Source of the DNA: Aspergillus flavus
Lineage: Eukaryota; Ascomycota; Eurotiomycetes; Eurotiales; Aspergillaceae
Direction: 5' to 3'
DNA length: 64,000 bases
NCBI RefSeq assembly: GCF_009017415.1
Contig: NC_092405.1
Coordinates: 1,674,001 to 1,738,000, forward strand
The notes below the pieces were generated by a model. The model made no database searches. It was not told the DNA's origin and saw only the letters and a program-made list of their open reading frames with translations. Positions 49,743-64,000 of the stretch are shown in pieces (position 1 is the stretch's first letter; the number at the start of each line of letters is the position of its first letter). The translations under genes and the position numbers were made by a program.

Positions 49743-50147
49743 CTATAACGTTACCGCCTCCAAATCACGCATCACAACCGACATCTGGGCGCGTTTGGCC
49801 GCCTCCGCTACGAGGCTGAAGTCCCGCAGGAATGGAGCCGTAGCGGTCGGGCCCCCAGACCCGGACACTTGGTGCGGATAGCTTTCCAGGGCATTCGGCT
49901 GTTGACCGCTGGCTTCTGGCAATTGGGACAGCTGCTGTTGGGAGTATTCAGTGGGCTGCGTGTGGGGGTGGTGCGATGCTGATCGCTCGTGTATGCTGGC
50001 TCCGGAAGTTGGGATTGGTTGCTTGGATGCGAGGCTGAGCGGGTTGTGAGGCTGAGGTGAGGTGGTGAGGAGCGCTTGTTGCGCTGTGCTCATGTTGTTA
50101 TTGGCGTGGTTGTTGCTGTTGCCTGGGATTTGTACTCTTGAGTCCAT
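49743..50147 (-). CDS. Small Gln/Ser/Pro-rich fungal protein, unknown function
   Basis: 134 residues from the ATG at 50147; the same frame is open further upstream but only from a TTG. It begins MDSRVQIPGNSNNHANNN and is disordered and Gln/His/Pro-rich up to about residue 95. The C terminus is a compact motif, APFLRDFSLVAEAAKRAQMS followed by VVMRDLEAVTL, which ends at the stop codon and looks conserved and helical. That pattern (long disorder plus one C-terminal helix) resembles fungal regulators, but no family is named. No signal or TM segment is seen. Confidence 0.6.
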   Translation of the reverse strand: MDSRVQIPGNSNNHANNNMSTAQQALLTTSPQPHNPLSLASKQPIPTSGASIHERSASHHPHTQPTEYSQQQLSQLPEASGQQPNALESYPHQVSGSGGPTATAPFLRDFSLVAEAAKRAQMSVVMRDLEAVTL

Positions 50148-51269
50148 TGTGGATGTATGATGGTGGATAGTCGTTGCGTTGGGGGCGGTTGAGTGGGATA
50201 GCCCGGTGGTTAAGTTCTTACGGGATGTAGATATCTTTCTAAGGAAGGATCGGTGAAGATATCGGATTTTCCGCGCGGGATAAAACAAGGTGAAGATTTT
50301 CCTGATGTGGGCTGATCTGGTGGGGTTTCGGATTTGATCCAAGTGGGCGGCTTGATAGACGTGGTGATGGTATTGGTAGTTCAAGGGAGTGAATGGCGTG
50401 ATGGAGAAAAGATAATAGGTAGAAAGGGAAAGAGGAAGGGGAAAATTTTTTTAGATGAGGGTCTAAAAGAAGAAGAAGAAGAAGGGAAGGAAAAAAAAAA
50501 AAAACGGCTTCACTCTGTAACAACACGTGGGGCTCTTTTATCTTTATTTTTTTCTTTCTTTTCTCTTTCCTCCAGATTATGACGTTAGATAAGATGATCT
50601 AGGAGTGGTGACGGCGATAGATAAGTCTTTCGCAATGAGAACCAGATTAAGCAGCAGTCTGTCTCTTACTTAAACCTGACGATCGGTACTTTTGGAGGAG
50701 CAAATCAGAATCAGGGGGGGCAAACAAAGACTAGGGTCTGAGGAATTGATTGTCCATGATCGACAAACTTGGGATTCATTCGTGATCGTCTGGACAGGCT
50801 TGATATGTACTTCATCCTAGTACCTTTGGGGGTAGGGTAGTAACTATAATATAGTAGGTAGTATTCTATAGGTAGTAAACGCATCACTATACTCCTCAGC
50901 GTCCAATTGATGGATAATTTTAATTTGCGCATGCCGACAATTACCCGAGTCGTATCAGGTCCGTATCTCCGCCAACCCCATGCGGGGATTGGCTGTTAAA
51001 TCCTCGAGAATGCAGGTACCGTACTGTATCAAATGATACTAGCCGGAGAAGCCTCGGCATCACCCGCAACCCCACCACGTGATCTCATGTGACTGCCCTG
51101 GAATTGATCCCCAGCGCTAATCCGCTTCCGGCAATCCCCCACTACTCCACTATTGTGTGCGATAGAGAATTCAGCATATGATTGCCGATCGCAGATGAAG
51201 AATTCTGGTTCGAATGACAATTCTGCACCACCTGATCCCCCGTGAATAGGGGGCTCGACGACGATCCAA
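50148..51269. other. Divergent intergenic region
   Basis: About 1.1 kb between the 49743-50147 gene (-) and EFM7 (+). It includes a purine-rich tract (GAAGAAGAAGAAG to A14, about 50465-50505). An AGAATT/AATTCT inverted pair lies near 51198-51227, just upstream of EFM7. No gene was seen. Confidence 0.5.
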
Positions 51270-52153
51270 ATGGCGGATGCAGATGACTTCGAAACGGGGG
51301 ACCTCTTCAAGGACCCCGAGGGCTTCTACGAGCCGGAAAAGGAGCCCACCTTCGCAGAGCACCACATGCTCTCCGGCCAAACGGTGCGCGTGCGCTTAGT
51401 TGGGGACCATCCTCTTTATGTACGACCGCACCCAGTCTGTCTTTCACAAGCCACCAACTGACGCTTCGCAAGGGTAACCTTCTCTGGAACGCCGGCCGAA
51501 CAAGCTCCCACTACATCGAAGAACATGCGCACGAGCTCATCGCCGGCAAAGATGTGCTCGAGATCGGCGCCGCTGCCGGCGTCCCCAGCATTATCGCCGC
51601 GGTCATGGGCGCTCGCACTTCCGTGATGACCGACTACCCGGATCCCGATCTCGTTGGTAACATGCGCTACAATGCGGAGATCTCCGCACCGTTGATCCCT
51701 AAGAACTCGTCCCTGCACGTTGACGGATATAAGTGGGGGAGCCCTGTGGAACCGTTGTTGGCGTACCTGCCGGCTGGGTCGACGGGCTTCGATGTCCTGA
51801 TCATGGCAGATGTGGTGTACAGCTGGCGGGAGCATGGCAATTTGATCAAGACGATGCAAATGACGCTGAAGAAGTCGCCCGATTCCGTTGCCTTGGTCAT
51901 CTTCACACCGTACGAACCGTGGTTCTTGCCCAGGACGGAGACGTTCTTCCCGTTGGCGGAGCAGAATGGATTTCGCGTGACGAAGATCTTTGAGAAGCTT
52001 ATGGATGCGGTCTTGTTTGAGAACGATCCTGGTGTAAGTGCATTTCTAGTATGGTTTTAGTGGTAGCTTTTGCTGACTCTGTTGCAGGATGAGAAGCTTA
52101 GGAGGACCGTTTTTGGATACGAGATTAGGTGGGCCGACGATCAGCTCAAATAG
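51270..52153 (+). CDS. EFM7 / Nnt1 methyltransferase of elongation factor eEF1A
   Basis: Three exons: 51270-51419, 51473-52033, 52088-52153, giving 258 residues; both introns (53 and 54 nt) are phase 0. It starts MADADDFETGDLFKDPEGFY, the family start. Joining exon 1 to 2 restores DHPLYGNLLWNAGRTSSHYI. SAM-binding motif I is VLEIGAAAGVPSI; the post-I acidic motif is MTDYPDPDLVGNMRYN; FDVLIMADVVYSWREHGNL follows. Family MTF16 enzymes such as yeast Efm7 methylate the N-terminal Gly and a nearby Lys of eEF1A; older annotation calls them nicotinamide N-methyltransferase. Cytosolic. The first intron uses a CAAG acceptor. Confidence 0.92.
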
Positions 52154-54258
52154 ACGATGCATAGACTAGATACCATGGCGTTGGTTGGGGAAAACAGGAA
52201 AACAGCATTGGAAGGTTTCACAATGCATGAAGTGACGAATCACGAAAATGGTGCAGATGACCGACTTATTTGTAGTATGATAGGTCGTTGATGTGCAAGA
52301 ATAAAAGTCTGGATTGTTTCATACTCTATACATATTCATATTCCTACTAAGCCGGTCCGCTCCTATTCACAAGTGTTAGATGGGATCGGGGCCTCTGTTC
52401 TACTGTCCCTTGAAGGTACTTTGTCATCTCTTTTTGCCCTTGTAAGTCTTGCTGATTTTGTTGAACGTTCGTAGTCTCTTTCTATTATACATGAGGTTAT
52501 TACACGTTCATGTTAGTAGAGGCCTTGGAATTCTCCAAAAGCCTCAGATGGTTTTCCATTATGGACTGGCATAGTTGCTCCAAGTGCCTTTTTTTGGTCG
52601 ATTGTGGTCCTTATCATTATGAACATGTTTATGCAACTTAATGGAGACGCTGAGGAGGATACCGACTAACCTGAGGAATGCCTTGAATAAACAAGACAAA
52701 ACCTAGCAATGATAGGTTTTCATTATAGGCAGAAGATAGGAAGTACATCGGTTGTAGGGTAGTGTATGTCCCACACGGATCAGGGAGCTACTGGTAAAAG
52801 TAGGACAAAACCACATACTTTTCCCTTCCCTCTACACAAAACAAGAAAGGGAAAATGTTCACGCTAGTCCGAAAGGAATAGTTTTTTTTCTACCTTATCT
52901 CACCTGGCAGGTTATGAAAGCCCCTTTGCGGGCTAAAGCCGGGCTGAAGCTGATCACATAGAGAGGGTTAAATTGTCGCAACCCAGGATTGACGTGCCGG
53001 GGTGTTTTCATCATGGTAAAGGAACTGTGTAAAGCCTGTAATCGACCTGAACTGCAGAAGTGCTACCAACAAGCTGTTAACCCGTGGTTCAATGAATCAT
53101 TAAGTACGGTGTATACTATAACTTCCTATTCAGGCATAGTACATATTTGTGCCTTAGGCATTCATACAGGGCATCACGTTTTGATTGACCAAAAAGGGAA
53201 ACAGTATGAGGTATTGGTCAACAAAGCGAGAATGTGATAGTCACATGTCTATCATTTAGTAATTGATGTCTTTGTCAGCCAGTCATCCTTATCTCTTAAC
53301 TGAGTAAGCACTCAGGGACCTTCCAAGTACGGTACAGATTCGAATGAGATAATGAGATTTATCTACAGCACAATGAGGGATAGCGCGCACATATCTCGAC
53401 TTATGAACACCTTTTACTTCGTTGTGTGAAAGCAAACCTGGGCTGTTGGAAAAAAGAGAAGAAAGACTTAATAGAAGTCTCGTGCGCTTCATCATAAGTG
53501 CTACGGTGTCGATGGATATGGTAAATGTATACGACTGCGTCCAAATTCAGTTTGACATTGAGATTATGCTGACATAGCACATAAAGCTCTTTGGCTTTGC
53601 AGGTAACGCTATGATTCCCGTAATTTAAGCTCTTTTGAGCTCTTAGCGAATGGAGAGACTTGACTAATATGAATACTTGCATAGGAGGTACCATTGTTGA
53701 AGGATACCTTAACTGTGCAAGGGAAACTGGCTAACGGTGGTTGGAATGTACAGGCGCTTGTGGGAGAAAGCTATCCGGTGTAAGACTCTGAACAATCTTT
53801 TAAAATGGGCTTCCAAATGAACTACTACATAATCATCCCACCATGGCCTCAGTCCGTTTGCGACACCTTCATCTCGTACCACCTGGGCTTGGTCTACTAA
53901 CCGTATGCAACAGCGATCGATTGATTTTATTGATTTGAGTAATACTCAAAGATTGGTATGTCAGTATTCATTGATTTGAGCTGACAATAGGTCAAGCATC
54001 AAACGCCATCCTAGCACGCTAATTATAACAATGGATGGCGGCGCATGCTCGTGGTTTCAATAAAGGCCTTGGAGCACAAACCGGTCTATATTCTTGCTAT
54101 TCCCAACGCTCGATCTCACGTCTATTTCTTTGTGACTGGGTAATTTAAGTAGTCCTCATGTTTTGAGGAGATTGCTACAACTTTTATCTGGATAAGCAGA
54201 AGACTGGCCACTGATATCTGGGGCGACACCCTATATCCACCATATCATCGAGTTCGCT
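52154..54258. other. Intergenic, possibly holding a 5' exon of the ABC transporter
   Basis: About 2.1 kb. A short frame at 52989-53237 has no recognisable family. The transporter coding sequence opens near 54195 but lacks an ATG before 54259, so an upstream exon within this region is possible. Confidence 0.4.
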
Positions 54259-57200
54259 ATGATTCAAGAGGTATAGTTGAATCTTTCCACATCATAATAT
54301 CTCCACTGCTTGATTCGAATGACTTACTCTGTTACCTAAGTGGAGCATTGTGGGCTCGATCCCAGCGGCATGTTTCGTGCCCTTGGCTTTACTGCGGATA
54401 CTGCGACTTCGTGAGGCGCGTTCGCAGGTGGCACCCTCATGTTTATATTCCAGCAAGCTAGTAGTTACTCCTCAACTCCCCGAGACAAATAGTACTTAAC
54501 AATTGATCTCAGGTTATCGCATACACTTTGGCCTTTCTCAAGTTCACTGCTTTAGCATTTGCGATTTCCAAGCGATCTTTCACAGACCAATCCCTGTTGT
54601 CTATTGCTTGTGTGTTCACAATCAGATTTGCAGCAGCATGCTTTCTTATTGCGCTCGTCCCACTGGAGCACTCCAGGACATTACGCCCGTCATTTCTGCT
54701 TTTATTCTACCTTTCAACTGACTTGATATTCAACGTGGTGCCTATCGGTAGCCCTTGGCCAGCCGACTCCAGTCTGGAGGTGAAGCGTTTTCTGGCCGCT
54801 TCTATTGGGATAGAATTGATCTTGCTTGCTTTAGAAACAGTTGAGAAGCGGAGGTGGCTTTTGACATACCACGCTGCTGTTCCCCGGGAGAGTACCAGTG
54901 GCCCTTTCAGCCGACTTCTATTTCTGTGGCTTAATCATCTGCTTAAAGCTGGGTATACTAATATGTTAACCCCAGACTGTATACTCCCACCCGTGCACGA
55001 GGGACTAGAATCGATACTGCTATTCGAGGATTTTGCTGTTGCGTGGGAAACCAGTGAGTTCCACGCCTTCACGCTGAGTATTATGCAGCTGAGAGTCTCT
55101 GACCAACGTAGGCGACCACGATCGTAGGCTCGCTTTGTTCCTTGCACTCATCAAGTGTATACGGTGGGAGATTGCTAAAATAGTAGTTCCCCGGCTATGT
55201 GTGGTGATATTCAACATGGCACAGCCATTTCTGCTCAGTCGGGCAATAGTATACTTCGGATCAACAGGCTCAAGACTGCCTCGAGACACCGCAGGGGACC
55301 TGATACGTGACTCTGCAATCGTTTTTATTGGAATCGCAGTAAGCTGCTCTAAACTTTGGGCGATTTTCATTAGCTTGTTAATTGACGGTACTTTCACAGA
55401 TCTCAAATGCAACTTATGAGCACTTGGGCCATCGCGCTATGGCCATGCTTCGTTCTGGGACGACTGCCCTTGTATATCATACAATGATGTGGTTGCATAT
55501 AGACATTGCTCACGAGTTTGGCGCTATTTCCCTGGTAGATGCAGATATTGACTCAGTTGCGGAGTTCGTCCGCCGTACGGTTTGTGATACTTGGGCAAAT
55601 GCCTTACAGCTGGGCCTAGCTACTTGGCTTTTATCGGCCCAAATTGGTGCTACCTGTACTGTCCCTATCATTTTTGCTATAGGTACGCTATCATTACTAT
55701 ATCTACCTTGCAGCGTAGCTGACTATAGCGTAATTTAGTATTTACATCCATATCTTTATATATAGTGGGCTCGGTGTCACGTCATCAGAAATCATGGCTC
55801 GAGGCCACTCAGAAGCGTGTCGACTTTACCACAAAAGTACTAGGGTCCACCAAGGCGATAAAGATGCTCGGGCTTATAGAAGGCATGGTCTATATGATTG
55901 AAGTCCTTCGTACAGAAGAGCTTAAGATCTCCAAGAAGTTTCAAAGAATCCAAGCAGCCAGGGTGTTGCTCGGTAAGCCCCATTGGACACGCAAAATTCG
56001 GTGCAAACTAATAATATGTTAAGTCAATCTACCACTAATACTGGGTCCATTATCTGCTTTCGCTGCATATTCGATCGCTGCTAGATTGGAAGGGTCTAGT
56101 GTCTTTTCTGTATCGCAAGCAATCACTTCCTTGTCACTAATAAACCTGTTGCTTACACCCCTTCAAGATTTGCTCTTTGCCATCCCTGATGCTTTCTCTT
56201 CTATTAAGTGTCTTGACAGAGTCCAGAATTTCTTGACCCGGAAGTCTCAAAATGACAAGAGAATGGTCGGACTGACATCTCCCGGATTGATGCCTTCATT
56301 GCAGCCACCAGTTCCCTTACCGAGAGCTCCAGGAAATGCCTCACCAAGGCTGAGAACTGCAGTTCTAGAATTGAATAATGTTACGATTGGAACTGGGCTG
56401 GACCATTCGAAACATATTGGGAGGTTGACGCTGAGACTTTCAACTCCCTCGCTCACTATGATAGTAGGCCCCGTGGGCTGTGGTAAATCGATATTGCTAA
56501 AGACAATCCTCGGTGAAATTGAACCAGTCGAAGGCGAGATCTCCATCAGCGACCTGGAAGTTGCGTACTGTGGTCAGTTGCCGTGGATCGTCAATAAGTA
56601 TATTCGGGAAAACATAATAGCAGGGTCCCGCTGTTACGATGGCGAGTGGTATCGTTCGATAATCCACGCATGTTGCTTGGACGATGATTTACGAGAAATG
56701 CCCGTTGGCGATAATACATTGATTGGCAGGCAGGGTACCAAACTCAGCAAAGGGCAAAGGCAAAGAATAGTAGGAGGCTATTATCGGATCTTACACGTCT
56801 TACGCTGATTATATTGCAGGCCATCGCTCGCGCAGTCTACGCACGAAAGCCCTTTGCATTCTTCGATGACGTCCTTAACGACCTTGATCAAGTTACTGCG
56901 CGGAAAGTGTTCGACCGTGTCTTCAGTGCAAGGGGCATTCTCCGGCGGATTGGGTGTATAGTATTATTCGCTTCTCATAGTGGTGGGCGCACCTAACCTT
57001 TGGGAGTTCTCGCCGCCTCGTGCCGAATTTTCTGACCATCACCTAGTAAATCACCTGCCACAAGCGGATCTCGTTATTGCATTTGGTGAAGATGGCCTTG
57101 AAATAGGTACGTTTCGCGAGCTTCAGGCTGCTAAAGGGGACATTTCAAAGCTATATATCTCAGAAAGGCCCAGAAATAGCCGCGAAGAAAACATCGCAAC

Positions 57201-59480
57201 GGACGAAATGGCTGCGAAAAGAAGAATGACACGAGGCGCTGCAAACATTGAAGACCAAACCCGAGAGACAAACGGCCTAGCGATCTATGCAACAGCTGTC
57301 GTGTGGCCAAAGGTTGCTCTTTTACTGGGATTTCTGGTTATGGAAGCAGGCTTGGGCGTTTTGCGCTGTATGTTGCCCCCAATATTCGTTCTCAGCGTCA
57401 GACCTGATGAATCGTATCCCTAGATGTCTGGGTTACCATGTGGTCTGAAAGTGAAGACGGTGTCTCAAACTCGAGACTAGGGTTCTGGCTCGGGATATAT
57501 GCCTCAATAGGGCTTGGTGAGGCAGCTGGGTTGATCCTGGCGATAGGGTAGGTGTTCTGGTGCAGCGGTTGACATGCTTCAGCTTTGACTAATCCGGCGA
57601 TTGATTTGTATTTGAAGTTGGATGTGGTTGGTGATTATGCCCGCTGCTTCGAAGAGCCTCCATGGGGTTATGTTAAGGGCAGTCATGATGTAAGCAAACA
57701 CTTCGACGTTGTGGTTCTTTTGCCTGACCTGATTGAATAGGACTCCAGTATCCTTCCTTTCTCGCATTGAAACGGGCAATTTTGTGAGCAGGTTAGCAGC
57801 ATACTAAAAGGTCAAGATTCTGTGGATACTGATGATGACCTGGACAGATTTAGTGAGGACATGGGATTGATTGATAAGGTTCTACCATGTGGCGTTATTT
57901 TGTTAGGCTTTCGTGAGTTTTCGAGCAACATCTATTGTATTGAGCTGACGGTTTTCACTTGTGCATCTTTAGAGGCTTTCCCAGCCATCGCCCAAGTTAG
58001 CGTCGTGATAGCGACTGTGCCACATATTGCCGTGGCAGTACCTTTTCTAGTTGGCATACTGATCTTGATTCATAGTGTGTATGTTCGGACATCGCGCCAA
58101 TTACGCCTGCACGAGTTAGTTCTGTCAACGGCTATCTAAGGAACCGCTAAGCTAACTGATGGCCAGGGCTAAAACCAAGGCTTCGTTACTTTCACATTTC
58201 ATGGACTCTTACGATGGCCTCGTTACTATCCGTAGTTTTGGATGGACGTCATCTATGAGGGACACGACGTACTATTTGCTCGACACAGCGCAGCGACCGT
58301 ACTATCACCTTATATGCATTCAGCGGTGGCTTGTGCTTGTCATCGACTTGATTGTAGCCGCATTGGCTGTGTTGTTGATCGGGTTGGCTGTTGCGATCAA
58401 ATCACCTATCGACCCTGGAATGCTTGGTGCTGGGTTGCTAATGATGACAATGCTTGGGCAGAACCTTTCAGGTATAATTCTGAGTTGGACTTCGATCGAG
58501 CCATCGCTTAGTGTCATCGCACAGCTCAAGCATTTCGTTGAGGATACACCGAGGGAATTGCGGCATCGCAATGTTATAAACCCCGGCGTCTGGCCAGCAC
58601 AAGGAGCCATCGAATTCAGAGACGTATCCGTCAGCCATGACTCCACATCCGATCCGGTACTACGAAATATCACGTTCACTCTTCAACCTGGACAGAAGCT
58701 GGGACTATGTGGACGAACTGAGGGGCAAGTACTATTCCTGATCATGTGAACCATGCTTATATAGACCTGACTCAGTTCCAGTAGCACAAGCTCACTTATT
58801 CTCGCCATACTTGGGATGGCTGAAGTGAAGTCCGGTCGAATCCTCATCGACGGGGAAGACATCTCAATGTTGTCGCCAGCCATAGTTCGCAACAGGATAC
58901 AATGCCTAGCCCAAGAGCCTTTCGTAGTTCCCGGTTCTGTTAGACAAAATCTCGACCCACTTGGGGACAAATGCGATAGCGAACTCATTGTCGCACTGGA
59001 GCGCGTCCAACTCTGGGGGGCCATGGTGGATAGATCTCTCATGTACGGGTTCCCTGACTGCAACCCTCTCGATATTATGATCGACGACAGCTTTCTATCA
59101 TATGGTCAGCAGCAGCTTCTGTGTCTTGCACGGCACCTGCTGAAGCAGAGTACGATATTGCTCCTGGATGAGCCTACTAGCGAGTAAGTGTACTCTGACT
59201 TTTATCTAGGCCATCGCGTTAATAGTATATTTGTGCTTTTAGTCTTGACGCCGCAGGGGATTCAGAGATCCAGGCGGTCATCCGATCGGAGTTTAGCTGT
59301 TGCACGACTATCATGATTGCGCGAAATCTTCGGACAATTCTGGACTTTGACTACGTGGCGGTGATTGACGAAGGTCGAATCGTCGAGTTGGGGAACCCGC
59401 AGTCTTTGCTGTCGGAGTCTCAAAGTATTTTTGGGACATTGTATCACGCCGAGACATTCGATCAAGGGAGTGATTTATAG
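54259..59480 (+). CDS. ABCC-type (MRP-like) ABC transporter with degenerate NBD2
   Basis: I resolve 17 exons, starting 54259-54270, 54341-54460, 54513-55053, 55112-55338, 55400-55682, 55766-55972, 56024-56769 and 56820-56982, then 57047-57367, 57424-57547, 57618-57689, 57741-57791, 57848-57912, 57973-58114, 58167-58724, 58782-59183 and 59243-59480. This gives 1,423 residues with every phase consistent. The order is TMD0, TMD1, NBD1, TMD2, NBD2. NBD1 is normal (Walker A GPVGCGKS, signature LSKGQRQR, Walker B FAFFDD, H-loop FASHSV). NBD2 has the signature LSYGQQQ and LLLDEPTS but Walker A reads GRTEGSTS and the H-loop reads IARNL. Intron 15 is GC-AG. The N terminus is uncertain. The substrate is unknown. 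Confidence 0.85.
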
Positions 59481-60125
59481 TGTGCATGTTGCATATACGG
59501 GCGAGGACACTTGGTGTCAATATGTATTGGCCAGGATATGTAATTTGTGGCCGTAATGGATTCATTCGATTTGCTAGACAGTGTCACAGTATCAATTAGA
59601 ATCGTGCATTCCCAGTCTGCATAACAAGGCAAACATGCCGACCTTGGTCAGTGTCCAAGAACACTGATAGCTTCCCTGGCATTTACAAGTTCCGCCATCT
59701 ACCCCGAACAGCAGGACAGGCATGACTCTGTGGGGAAGCCTAATAAGCTTCTCCAGAGAGTTCTCATGATACTATCCATTGAACAAGACCCCTTGACGGA
59801 ACCACCGAAAGCTTATCACTGGATTCAGGGAATAGTCTAACTCAACTCCAGCTGGTATACCTGTTACCTGGTTTTTTACCTTGGTATCGTCTGGGGATAC
59901 AAGGTAAACCAGAAAGCCTGGCCATGATGTAGAAATAAAACAGCATAACTTTTCTTCTAGAAACTATATATTATTAGACATATAATCACACATAATCCCC
60001 CATTGTCCTCAAATTCGATTTCAGATAAACCAAATAAAAAACCCCACATTCCACCTTCTCCATAACCCAAATTAGTTGACTGATATTGATATTTCCTATC
60101 ACCAAAGATCAATGGAAAGACCAAA
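59481..60125. other. Intergenic, no supported gene
   Basis: 645 bp between the transporter stop and the small gene at 60126. No repeats or RNA genes were seen. Confidence 0.55.
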
Positions 60126-60374
60126 ATGCTCCATCTCAAACTCACCATCCCCAAACCCATCAACGACTCCGTCATCGAATCCCTCACAGCCCGCCTAAAG
60201 AAAATCGACGAAGACTTCAACCTCACCTCCATCGACCAGCGATTCGCAGAAGCGTTCTACGACTGTCCAGACTCGAGCGAGTCCGAGCTAGACGTGGTCC
60301 GCACGGATATCCAACAATTGTTGAAAGATCCGAATCCGCTGATTCGTGGATATACAATTGATCATCATTGGTAG
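60126..60374 (+). CDS. Small acidic protein, unknown function
   Basis: 82 residues, intronless, ATG with AAAATGC context. It reads as one helical domain: KLTIPKPINDSVIESLTARL, IDEDFNLTSIDQRFAEAFYD, then acidic ELDVVRTDIQQLLKDPNPLI. No signal peptide or Cys is present. The codon choice (C-rich third positions) differs from the AT-rich flanks, which supports coding. No family is recognised. Confidence 0.5.
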   Translation: MLHLKLTIPKPINDSVIESLTARLKKIDEDFNLTSIDQRFAEAFYDCPDSSESELDVVRTDIQQLLKDPNPLIRGYTIDHHW

Positions 60375-61509
60375 TTGGGAGTTTAAATACGGAGTAATTT
60401 ATATTATTGAGGCTGGGGGTTTCCGGGCTGTGTTGGGTTTATTTTGTTTATGATAAAGTCGGATCTTGCGTGTGTAGTAGTTTATATATATGGTTGGTTA
60501 AAGTTTTGTTATCAGATTCATGGCGATGTTATAGCAATGCATTTGGTTTGGTTTACTATCTGTAAAGGGTGTTGATGAGTTGAGTTGATTATCCAGAATA
60601 TGACAGGTCAGGGACTCAGGGTTAAGTAGCTCCATGTCTGGTCAGACCCTGGACCCTTTCTGGACCCGGCCTTGGCGAAGCGATATGGCGTACGGTCAGA
60701 CTTGCCTTCATACCGACGGATATACTCCGAACGAGTCTGCAGCTGTACTCCGTAATCAAATAATTATCAAGAATTGACACCACAGCATATATTACGGAGT
60801 ATACATAGTATATATAATATTTGTTATTTCCCTATATAGCAAACAACTACACACGGTACTGTAGACACGGTTTTCACCTCTCAAACCCGACGGCCCAACC
60901 CACCCCTCCCGATCCCTATGAATTATCTCTCACCACTCAGAACCCAGGAAATACGGCCGCCCCACTCCAAAACAGCCTCACGCAATCAAAAGCCCGACAG
61001 AAGAATGAAATTTGGGGGCCAAACAAGCCGCACGAGTCGGACTTGAAATCTAACGGGGGGCTGAGAACTCTTGGCGCCCTCCCTATCAGGCATCTCACTG
61101 GATATTCTCTGCTCGATTAGGGTAACTGGCTGGTCGATGAGGACGCTAGTTGACTCCGCCGACTCCTTATTTCTGCGTCGCGGCCAATGGGATGTTTCCT
61201 TCGTGTGCCACGGGTGGTTACTTTTGTAAGCTGCAGAATTGTTGATTGAGGGTCTGGGTTACTTTTGTGATGAGTTGCTTGGACTGGGTTGGGGTTTGGT
61301 TTCTTCTTGGGATCTTTCTTTGGTTTCTGTTTTGGTGTTTTTGTTTGTTCGTGGTGTTGCTTTACTTTATTTTATCTTAATATACTCTATTATTTTCATT
61401 ACTCTTGAGTCCTGACGAGGTTCTTGATACTTATCCACCCCCAAGCCCAATATACAACACACCGCAACCCAGCCTTACAAAGAAAACGGACAAGAAAAGA
61501 CAAGACAAA
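60375..61509. other. Intergenic, with three TACGGAGTA copies
   Basis: About 1.1 kb. TACGGAGTA or its complement occurs at 60388-60396, 60746-60754 and 60793-60801, the densest cluster in the window. TA-rich sequence around 60800-60830 includes TATATA. The right end is the promoter of the 61510 gene. Confidence 0.5.
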
Positions 61510-62531
61510 ATGAAACTCCAACCAATACCCCTCTTCCTCTCCCTCTCCCTCCTATTCATCCTCCCCACCCACGCCCAAAACCGAACATGCTACTTCCTCG
61601 ACGGCAGCGTCGCAACCGCAGACGTCCCCTGCACCTCCGACGCAACCACAAACTGCTGCAACAAGAACGACATCTGCATGTCCAATGGGCTCTGCTACCT
61701 GCAGGGGTCTCACGGCATGTCGCTGTCCAGGGGGAGCTGCACGGATAAATCTTGGGGTGCGAGGTGTTTTGCGCCGTGTTGTATGTTCCATTTCTCTTTT
61801 CTTCTATCTTCTTTCTTCTTTCTATATGATTTTGGGTGTATATCTTGGTCTAGTCTATCTAGACTGATATATAATCCCTGGAGTCGGGCGTATATACTAG
61901 GAAAGGATAACGGAACTAACAGAAGAAACCTACAGCAAGCACAAACCGCAACAACGGCTTCCCAGTCGTAAACGTCGGGTTCTCAGGCTCATCCTCGAAA
62001 TACTGCTGTGGCTCTGTCACAGTCAAAGATGGTTCCACGACTTGTTCATCTGAGGGGGATCCCTTCACGATTACCATGGGGACGGCGATTCCGGGCGTGG
62101 CGGCGTTGGCTGTGAATAACTCGGACTCGGATTCGGGGTCGGGGTCGGGATCGGGATCGGATTCGAACAATAACAGTACTTGCGATGACGCTGACTATAA
62201 ACTGAAGGAGAAGGCGTTGGATAATCATGATGTGGCTATTGGGGTCGGGGTGGGTGTGCCGCTGGGGGTTATTGCGATTGCGTCGATTGCTTGGGCTTTG
62301 TATGAGCGGAGACAGAGACGGAGTGCTGTCCGGGGGGTTGGGGAGAAGGGGGATGCTGGGGGGTATATGGGGTTGAATGGGGGGAGTTTGAGTGGGAGTA
62401 TGAATATGGGTGGGAATGGGAATATGGGAGGGAATATGGGTATGGGGGGTATGCCGCTGGCCGAGTTGAACACTACTCAGGCTAGTACTCAGCGGCCGGT
62501 GGAGTTGGATTCTGGTAAGGTGCACAGGTAG
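61510..62531 (+). CDS. Secreted/anchored Cys-rich protein with one TM segment and Gly/Met-rich tail
   Basis: Two exons: 61510-61780 and 61936-62531, giving 288 residues; the 155-nt intron is phase 1 (GTATGT...CTACAG). The start ATG at 61510 gives a signal peptide (MKLQPIPLFLSLSLLFILPT, cut near AQN). The ectodomain is Cys-rich (TCYFLDGS, CCNKNDICMSNGLCY, KYCCGSVTVKDG). A Ser/Gly/Asp linker is followed by a TM helix (VAIGVGVGVPLGVIAIASIA) with a basic stop (YERRQRRS). The cytoplasmic tail is Gly/Met/Asn-rich. The layout resembles fungal cell-wall sensor-like or surface proteins, but no WSC domain is clear. Function unknown. Confidence 0.8.
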
Positions 62532-62882
62532 TAGTATTGTGGATGTGTTGTTATGTGTTATGTGTTTGGGTTTGTGTTATAGTTCGATACCTGGTTGCTT
62601 TATTATGTACTTTACTTACTTTACTAACTAATGTTGGGCTGCAATGGATGATGTCAGATGCCGTGATTCTTGTCATACAGTCTTGTCCTGGAGGATTGGG
62701 CTTTTCGGTGGAGCATTGCGAGTGGCTCGTTCGTATCTTCTAAATCTTCTAATACGAGATGCTGACTTGGTCTGGCGAACCTAATCGCATATCAGTGACC
62801 TTCATTGTGTTTCCATTGTTTATGTAATGCTTATTATTATCTGTTTTATCTCGTATACCCGTCCATGTCTACCCAGTAGACC
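62532..62882. other. Convergent intergenic region
   Basis: 351 bp between two convergent genes; only 3' UTR-like sequence is seen. Confidence 0.6.
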
Positions 62883-64000
62883 CTATCGTAGCCAGAATCC
62901 ACGTTGGATGTGCAAGTGCATCGCCCGTTCCTCTCGGACAGATGGCTCCTTGTGGTTCGCCCTACGCGGACTGGCAGGGTTGAAGGTGGGAGGGCCCGTC
63001 GTCGTGTTGGGTTGGGTTTCAGGCGTGCCAGACATGTCCAAGCGCTGCAGACCGGGCAGTCGCAGCGCCGGATCGAAGTTGATGAGGATGATCGCCTGAA
63101 GATCCGAGCTCAGGCCCTCCTGGTTCACCGTGTAGATGATGGTCCGTTCATCCGCCATGGCCTCCACCTTGCCGGTTCGCTTGGATGGGCAGAGAAGTTG
63201 CGTCAACTCGGCCGGCGCGTTGTCAGGCGGCCATAGGCGGACTCCGCGTGATGCGAAGCGCTCTTCACTGCAACCTGCGGCTTGTCCATCTTCTTCCTGG
63301 TCTTCTTCCGTTATCTCCGGTTGATAGAGCAGGTTGGGGGTTCCTTCTTCGCCCGCCTCGTCGATCGGGCACTTGCGCTTGCGTGACACCATGCGCAGTC
63401 GCAGCCGGTCGTGCGGGATCAGGCTGCCCGGGGTTGGGCATGGGTCGTTAACGAGATCGACGAAGGTCGAGGCGGAGAGGTTGTACGTGCGTAGCTTGGT
63501 GCGGTTCAGGATGAAGTCCTGTCGATGTACGGGGTCGTCATGGCCCAGAGTGTATTCGGGGTGGTAGTGTCGGCGGAGGCGCTTCCGGGGGCGTTCGTAG
63601 TTCGGTTTGCTGGACGGGTCCAGGGTTTTGGTCAACGGTTCGTCCGGCAGAGAGACGGGACGGCAGGCTTCGCCCTGGTGCTTACTTTGCATGATCTCGG
63701 CGGGCGACGGGAGCGGCTGCACGTAGTAGGTGCGGAAATTCTCGCTGCCGCCCTTGTGCCACTCGCGACGACATTCCAGGATGATCAGCTGTTTCGTGGC
63801 CTCATCGTGTCGCAGGGAGATATCTGACCAGGAGTCGTTAATGGGGCCTTCCCGATGCTGTCGGCGCCAGGTCCGGTTGAGTGTCACGCGCTTCGTATTG
63901 TTGGTGGGGGCCACGCAGACCCAAACGTAGAATGAGGTCCAGTCGACTTCTTCCATTTCGAAAGCTGTCTGCGTCGACACGGCGTACAGATGGTCCTGGT
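62883..64000 (-). CDS. Fungal protein of unknown function, 5' end beyond the window
   Basis: The minus-strand frame is open from the window edge (64000) to the stop at 62883, over 365 residues. At the left edge of the protein the frame reads DHLYAVSTQTAFEMEEVDW without a start, so the gene most likely continues beyond the window; the first internal ATG is MEEVDW. Recognisable segments are SFYVWVCVAPTNNTKRVTLN, KRLRRHYHPEYTLG, LRLRMVSRKRKCPID (basic, nuclear-signal-like) and an acidic patch EITEEDQEEDGQ. No domain is recognised and no TM segment is seen. GC content is much higher than in the flank, supporting coding. Confidence 0.65.
   Translation of the reverse strand, partial: QDHLYAVSTQTAFEMEEVDWTSFYVWVCVAPTNNTKRVTLNRTWRRQHREGPINDSWSDISLRHDEATKQLIILECRREWHKGGSENFRTYYVQPLPSPAEIMQSKHQGEACRPVSLPDEPLTKTLDPSSKPNYERPRKRLRRHYHPEYTLGHDDPVHRQDFILNRTKLRTYNLSASTFVDLVNDPCPTPGSLIPHDRLRLRMVSRKRKCPIDEAGEEGTPNLLYQPEITEEDQEEDGQAAGCSEERFASRGVRLWPPDNAPAELTQLLCPSKRTGKVEAMADERTIIYTVNQEGLSSDLQAIILINFDPALRLPGLQRLDMSGTPETQPNTTTGPPTFNPASPRRANHKEPSVREERAMHLHIQRGFWLR

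What the first reader, a model, noticed from the sequence alone, without database searches (positions are those of the whole stretch)
54259..59480. Intact ABCC transporter whose canonical ATPase site is degenerate
In ABCC proteins NBD1 is usually the weak site and NBD2 carries hydrolysis. Here NBD1 is normal, but NBD2 has GRTEGSTS instead of GRTGSGKS (Walker A Lys lost) and IARNL instead of the AHRL H-loop (His lost), while signature and Walker B remain. All 17 exons keep frame, so the gene is not simply dying. It may be a regulated channel-like or substrate-sensing pseudo-transporter.
Basis: partly seen in the sequence, partly recalled or inferred. Interest (0 to 1): 0.8.

Follow-up and report, generated by a model that had tools for sequence, protein, structure and literature searches.

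The report
Fading fungal transporter without ATPase site
In the mould Aspergillus flavus, one copy of a common membrane-pump gene still has an open reading frame but has lost the residues needed to burn ATP, most likely because the gene is slowly fading rather than because it has gained a new job.

Summary
A 17-exon model (54259-59480, 1432 aa) keeps frame; NBD2 reads GRTEGSTS (Walker A Lys lost) and MIARNL (H-loop His lost), with signature and Walker B kept. The Walker A intron must be GC-AG; the nearest paralogue (L033) has a GT-AG intron there and intact motifs. Of 36 ABC-exporter loci examined in this genome, only this one lacks both residues. His is gone in 16 of 16 section-Flavi orthologue models that cover it; Lys in 10 of 11, kept in one A. 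pseudonomiae model. But erosion is not ATPase-specific: invariant residues are lost in all domains, and change 5.6 and 7.5 times as often as in L033 for two matched species, with similar free-site rates. Constraint is relaxed, not absent. Best reading: an ATPase-dead, fading ABCC paralogue. A selected channel or sensor role is possible but has no positive evidence. Putative pseudogenes among A. oryzae ABC-C proteins are already reported.

The parts
54259..59480 (+). ABCC-type full transporter gene, 17-exon model, 1432 aa, ATPase site 2 eroded
   Evidence: orthologues
54259..54460 (+). exons 1-2 with the intron between (remnant of TMD0 N-terminus); start uncertain, donors GTATAG and GTAGTT weak, ancestral CxGGFDF block missing
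54513..55053 (+). exon 3, TMD0 and start of the core
   Evidence: weak TMD0_ABC Pfam match (18.2 bits, cut-off 27)
56024..56769 (+). exon 7: NBD1 Walker A GPVGCGKS (intact), Q-loop, signature LSKGQ (LSGGQ in 54 of 54 outgroup proteins)
56820..56982 (+). exon 8: NBD1 Walker B FAFFDD and H-loop FASHS
58167..58724 (+). exon 15: end of TMD2, start of NBD2, first half of Walker A (GRTEG)
58725..58781 (+). 57-nt GC-AG intron (GCAAGT...CTGAC...TTCCAG) inside NBD2 Walker A, at the position of a GT-AG intron in L033
58782..59183 (+). exon 16: second half of NBD2 Walker A (STS in place of GKS), Q-loop LAQEP, signature LSYGQ, Walker B ILLLDEP
59243..59480 (+). exon 17: D-loop SDLD (its first codon is split by the intron), H-loop MIARNL (His to Arg), C-terminus

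Best explanation
This is an ABCC (MRP-type, full-size) paralogue of A. flavus, found here only in section Flavi, on which selection has been relaxed over the whole protein. Shown: the hydrolytic ATP site (NBD2 Walker A and H-loop plus NBD1 signature) is eroded on both faces, and the public orthologues place the loss of the signature Gly and the His before that of Lys (Lys step rests on one A. pseudonomiae model). Shown: the open frame and splice signals are still present in A. flavus. Inferred: the protein, if made, can at best bind ATP at the weak site 1 and cannot pump; the gene is a fading duplicate on its way to loss, kept in frame by weak or recently ended selection.
For: Motif losses and intact frame. 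Orthologue models: His absent in 16 of 16 that cover the spot (A. flavus, oryzae, arachidicola, parasiticus, sergii, nomiae, pseudonomiae); Lys replaced by Thr in 10 of 11 that cover it (A. flavus, oryzae, transmontanensis, parasiticus, sergii), kept in P0038 (A. pseudonomiae). Invariant-site substitutions against A. flavus: A. sergii 10 of 165 here versus 2 of 247 in L033 (p 0.004); A. pseudonomiae 27 of 217 versus 6 of 269 (p 1.3e-5); free-site rates similar (32 of 237 versus 53 of 424, p 0.72; 95 of 306 versus 116 of 430, p 0.25). Losses in all domains. Lineage-specific further losses: Walker B Glu to Ala in A. sergii, NBD2 Q-loop Gln to Arg and NBD1 His to Arg in the nomiae group. Long stem branch, 0.61 substitutions per site. 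In ABCC1, replacing the site-2 H-loop His almost abolishes transport except for Gln or Asn (PMC7756269, passages seen); here it is Arg. ABC-C group V is most numerous in A. [quoted passage not shown]
Against: The conserved/free rate ratio between species (0.38-0.65) is at or below the lower edge of the neutral simulation (0.66-1.45 at about 10% divergence, 0.77-1.25 at about 23%), so some constraint remains or lasted long. No stop or frameshift from exon 2 on, although at d about 0.03 per lineage about 4 stops, 2 splice-dinucleotide hits and, on an assumed indel rate, about 10 frameshifts would be expected without selection. Fourteen of 16 donors keep +5 G. Overall divergence is not dramatically faster than L033: 9.5% versus 6.9% for A. 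sergii, 23.5% versus 14.0% for A. pseudonomiae. No expression data.
Confidence: 0.62

Rival explanations
1. Selected pseudo-transporter: an ATP-binding but non-hydrolysing ABCC that works as a channel, channel regulator or substrate sensor, with site 1 as the only nucleotide site.
For: Site 1 is nearly intact in A. flavus (2 of 22 invariant residues changed against 7 of 27 in site 2); frame kept after the ATPase was lost; residual constraint.
Against: Site 1 versus site 2 difference not significant (p 0.16) and site 2 not different from the rest of the protein (p 0.44); TMD2 is the most eroded part (21 of 74); the nomiae group loses the NBD1 His and the NBD2 Q-loop Gln; [quoted passage not shown]
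Confidence: 0.18
2. Long-dead pseudogene: untranscribed or mis-spliced, and the open frame is luck.
For: Public models of the 17 orthologues are discordant (854-1322 aa) and 9 of 17 leave out part of exon 15 while a tenth (P0016) leaves out all of TMD2; exon 15 is open in the window; N-terminal block missing; within A. flavus/oryzae the ratios are 0.71 and 0.99 on 19 and 23 differences.
Against: Expected lesions absent in the window; ratio below neutral between species. P0001, from this same locus, is also a broken-up model although the DNA is open, so discordant models are weak evidence of lesions.
Confidence: 0.15
3. Working transporter with an unusual ATPase, or an mRNA with a canonical Walker A.
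For: Open frame; Walker B Glu, Q-loop and signature of NBD2 kept.
Against: No in-frame splice choice that I found yields GK; Lys, His and the partner signature Gly are lost together; the same TSS and ARN in other strains and species speak against a sequencing error.
Confidence: 0.05

Closest known systems
L033 (G000:C5:963500-971500) and its match P0121, 'ABC transporter [Aspergillus flavus]'
   Same: Same domain order and 13 shared intron positions by inspection; 34-59% identity piece by piece; P0121 is 99% identical to L033
   Different: Keeps GKSGSGKS, AHRI, LSGGQ and the CRGGFDF N-terminus; evolves under ordinary constraint
Fungal ABC-C group V of PMC2848647 (Phylogenetic analysis of fungal ABC transporters)
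   Same: Pezizomycotina ABC-C expansion, largest in A. oryzae, with some putative pseudogenes noted (section 8 read)
   Different: Group assignment not tested here; the paper's gene tables were not open to me; motif loss at site 2 is not described in what I read of it (section 8 and passages)
MRP1/ABCC1 and other ABCC exporters with degenerate site 1
   Same: NBD1 Walker B ends in Asp instead of Glu (FAFFDD), as in the family (passages of PMC7756269)
   Different: Here the consensus site 2 is lost too (Lys, His, partner signature Gly)
CFTR (ABCC7) and SUR1/2 (ABCC8/9)
   Same: ABCC proteins that are not pumps; the NBD2 exon finds SUR2 first among solved structures
   Different: CFTR hydrolyses ATP at site 2 (passages of PMC7756269); SUR keeps its site 2 motifs (recalled); channel or regulator function untested here

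Membership tests
ABCC (MRP-type full transporter) | Two ABC NBDs | tested here: met
   PF00005 49.5 bits in the exon 7 frame and 67.5 bits in the exon 16 frame, cut-off 25
ABCC (MRP-type full transporter) | Two transmembrane domains of ABC type I | tested here: inconclusive
   PF00664 26.3 bits (cut-off 28) for the TMD2 end; no PF00664 match for the TMD1 pieces; both halves align with intact ABCC relatives
ABCC (MRP-type full transporter) | N-terminal TMD0 | tested here: inconclusive
   TMD0_ABC 18.2 bits (cut-off 27); CxGGFDF block missing
ABCC (MRP-type full transporter) | Degenerate site 1 (Asp for catalytic Glu in NBD1) | tested here: met
   FAFFDD
ABCC (MRP-type full transporter) | Hydrolysis-competent site 2 (NBD2 Walker A Lys, Walker B Glu, H-loop His; NBD1 LSGGQ) | tested here: not met
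   K1222T, H1381R, G715K; Glu kept. It is a relative by descent, not a competent member
CFTR/SUR-like non-pump ABCC | Channel or channel-regulator activity | not testable with these tools
   needs electrophysiology or a partner screen
Pseudogene | Frame or splice lesions | tested here: not met
   none from exon 2 on in the window; orthologue DNA not available
Pseudogene | Neutral substitution pattern | tested here: inconclusive
   intermediate between neutral and constrained

The most novel reading that the evidence does not exclude
An ABCC protein that lost its hydrolytic site before the flavus-parasiticus split and has since been kept in frame for a non-transport role (ATP-binding sensor or channel-like regulator using only site 1), which would be the first such fungal ABCC known to me.
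Probability: 0.15. Interest if true: 0.75.

Novelty: new member of a known kind. Interest (0 to 1): 0.33.

Why it matters
If the fading-gene reading is right, this is a natural series of how an ABC exporter loses its ATPase (signature Gly and His first, Walker A later), with a matched intact paralogue in the same species as control. If the pseudo-transporter reading were right, fungi would have an ABCC that is not a pump. For genome users it also warns that the public models of this gene disagree with each other and, in A. flavus and A. oryzae, avoid a GC-AG intron in the Walker A motif.

Tried and rejected
Sequencing error: rejected, because the same TSS and ARN occur in other strains and species. 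A hidden canonical Walker A through other splice sites: I tried the GT donors near 58725 and the three AG acceptors near 58770-58785 by eye; none keeps frame and gives GK. ATPase-specific erosion: tested and not significant. Frank pseudogene from model gaps in relatives: set aside, because P0001, from this very locus, also has gaps where the DNA is open. Intron-translated stretches as a neutral ruler: dropped, because ungapped matches over-run exon ends and even P0001, of the same genome, showed 10 false differences in 58. A DNA match of the lost N-terminal exon upstream of the gene: score 18 against a shuffled mean of 18.5, not significant. Repeats in the 1-kb upstream stretch: one match, itself, in the genome search. 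Rfam 50000-64000 at gathering thresholds: nothing. Rows dropped: of P0017-P0073, P0052 (fusion) and P0065 were left out and P0038 moved to the Flavi set, giving 54 outgroup proteins (53, where P0020 served as a comparison); of the proteins listed from P0074 on, only eleven from the second search were used, as L033 relatives. In one search, 12 of 17 Flavi models were compared (P0001, P0003, P0004, P0006, P0007 left out). Compared models were masked where a 13-residue stretch fell under 50% identity, for both genes, which can lower free-site rates and so raise the ratio; the control pairs were not masked. No structure was predicted.

Full report
What is there. The window lies on contig C4 (4,810,201 bases) of a 37.7-Mb genome in 8 contigs. 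The protein search returned P0001, 'P-loop containing nucleoside triphosphate hydrolase protein [Aspergillus flavus]', on a contig of exactly that length, and 1131 of its 1131 residues matched to in-frame exon codons are identical to the model, so the source is A. flavus.

The motif loss. NBD2 Walker A is GRTEGSTS where outgroup proteins have GRTGSGKS (35), GRSGSGKS (17) or GKSGSGKS (1) of 54; the H-loop is MIARNL where the three commonest outgroup forms, 48 of 54, are MVAHRI, MIAHRI and MIAHRL. The Walker A codons are interrupted by a 57-nt intron with donor GCAAGT and a branch-like CTGAC; L033 has a 104-nt GT-AG intron at the same codon. The public models of A. flavus and A. oryzae instead read the first intron codons (GQVLFLII) and must use a second, shorter intron that I estimate at about 30-36 nt; they also end in TSS (P0001-P0007). 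Three models of the nomiae group (P0009, P0014, P0015) read GRTGGQVLF, which implies the same GC donor; this is inferred from protein only.

In an ABCC dimer, site 2 is built from NBD2 Walker A, Walker B and H-loop and the NBD1 signature (established knowledge, recalled). The NBD1 signature is LSKGQ here, LSQGQ in the parasiticus group (LSQGK in A. sergii P0016) and LSRGQ in the nomiae group, against LSGGQ in 54 of 54 outgroup proteins. Site 2 is therefore damaged on both faces. Site 1 (NBD1 GPVGCGKS, FAFFDD, FASHS; NBD2 LSYGQ) looks much as in relatives in A. flavus.

How unusual in the genome. One search gave loci for 12 of 25 matches and for 30 of 115; with four fetched stretches I scanned 45 locus records, 36 distinct places. 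The window gene lacks both residues; the other 35 show GK[ST] and His. ABC loci beyond these were not examined.

Order of loss. Of the 17 Flavi models, 11 cover the Lys position: 10 read Thr (P0001-P0007, P0010, P0012, P0016) and one, A. pseudonomiae P0038, reads GKSSL. Sixteen cover the His position and none has His: Arg in the flavus group and in P0008, P0011, P0012, P0013; Pro in P0016; Asp in P0009, P0014, P0015, P0038. So the signature Gly and the His went before Lys, unless His was lost more than once, which the different residues leave open.

Constraint. Sites were classed by conservation in intact relatives. Between A. flavus and its sister species, conserved (invariant plus highly conserved) sites of the window gene changed at 0.38-0.65 of the rate of free sites (10 comparisons), and against an A. 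flavus and an A. oryzae model at 0.71 and 0.99 on 19 and 23 differences. The paralogue L033 gave 0.11-0.16 against A. sergii, A. novoparasiticus and A. pseudonomiae (4 comparisons), 0.16-0.24 against five further species, and 0.31 on 20 differences against P0121. Ten outgroup pairs of similar divergence gave 0.11-0.23. Random mutation of the coding sequence gave about 1.0 (0.66-1.45 at 10% divergence, 0.77-1.25 at 23%). In matched species pairs the free-site rates of the two genes are similar, while invariant sites change 7.5 (A. sergii) and 5.6 (A. pseudonomiae) times as often in the window gene. So selection is relaxed, though not absent. The erosion covers every domain and is not significantly concentrated in site 2.

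Against plain death. The Lys-less state is shared by the flavus and parasiticus groups, so it predates their split; since then a neutral frame would be expected to gather about four stops, two splice-dinucleotide hits and, on an assumed indel rate, about ten frameshifts per lineage at d about 0.03 (d is taken from free-site protein divergence of about 11-13%). The window shows none from exon 2 on. The N-terminus, however, has lost its ancestral block. Whether the relatives are broken cannot be told from their protein models: 9 of 17 leave out part of exon 15, but P0001 shows that the models are unreliable even where the DNA is open.

Literature. Of fungal ABC-C group V, the highest number was found in A. 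[quoted passage not shown] In ABCC1, ATP stays bound at site 1 while site 2 hydrolyses, and replacing the site-2 H-loop His almost abolishes transport except for Gln or Asn (PMC7756269, passages seen). Searches with ABCC, Aspergillus flavus, section Flavi and pseudogene (2 papers), with inventory and degenerate (14 papers), with Walker A lysine, NBD2 and fungal (15 of 16 listed) and with pseudo-transporter (none) listed no title or abstract start about this gene; apart from the two papers named, only listings were seen.

Verdict. A real motif loss, unique among the loci examined, in a fading ABCC paralogue; new as a described case as far as these searches reach, ordinary in kind.

Noticed in passing
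window 60126-60374: Small ORF downstream (MLHLKLTIPKPINDSV...) is fused to the ABC gene in two public models (P0004, P0012) and is far better conserved than it: 0 of 88 differences in A. oryzae, 2 of 85 in A. parasiticus (a few codons upstream of the ATG included); no Pfam match. Perhaps a real small gene.
   Followed up: partly
G000:C3:4255527-4256030 (L049): Another ABCC-like NBD2 with three stops in the matched stretch and LNEA in place of LDEA at Walker B; may be a broken paralogue or introns.
   Followed up: no
window 55054-55111 and 57792-57847: Two introns with good signals that the paralogue L033 lacks: intron gain here or loss there.
   Followed up: no
P0087 (A. bertholletiae) and P0137 (A. 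arachidicola): L033-type relatives with single site-2 changes (IVARRI H-loop; GRTGSSKS Walker A): site-2 erosion may recur in this family.
   Followed up: no
window 51287-52060: Reading frame upstream with a Methyltransf_16 match (PF10294, 53.2 bits), apparently an ordinary gene.
   Followed up: no
window 53240-54260: About 1 kb upstream of the ABC gene that matches only itself in the genome search; no gene was assigned to it.
   Followed up: partly
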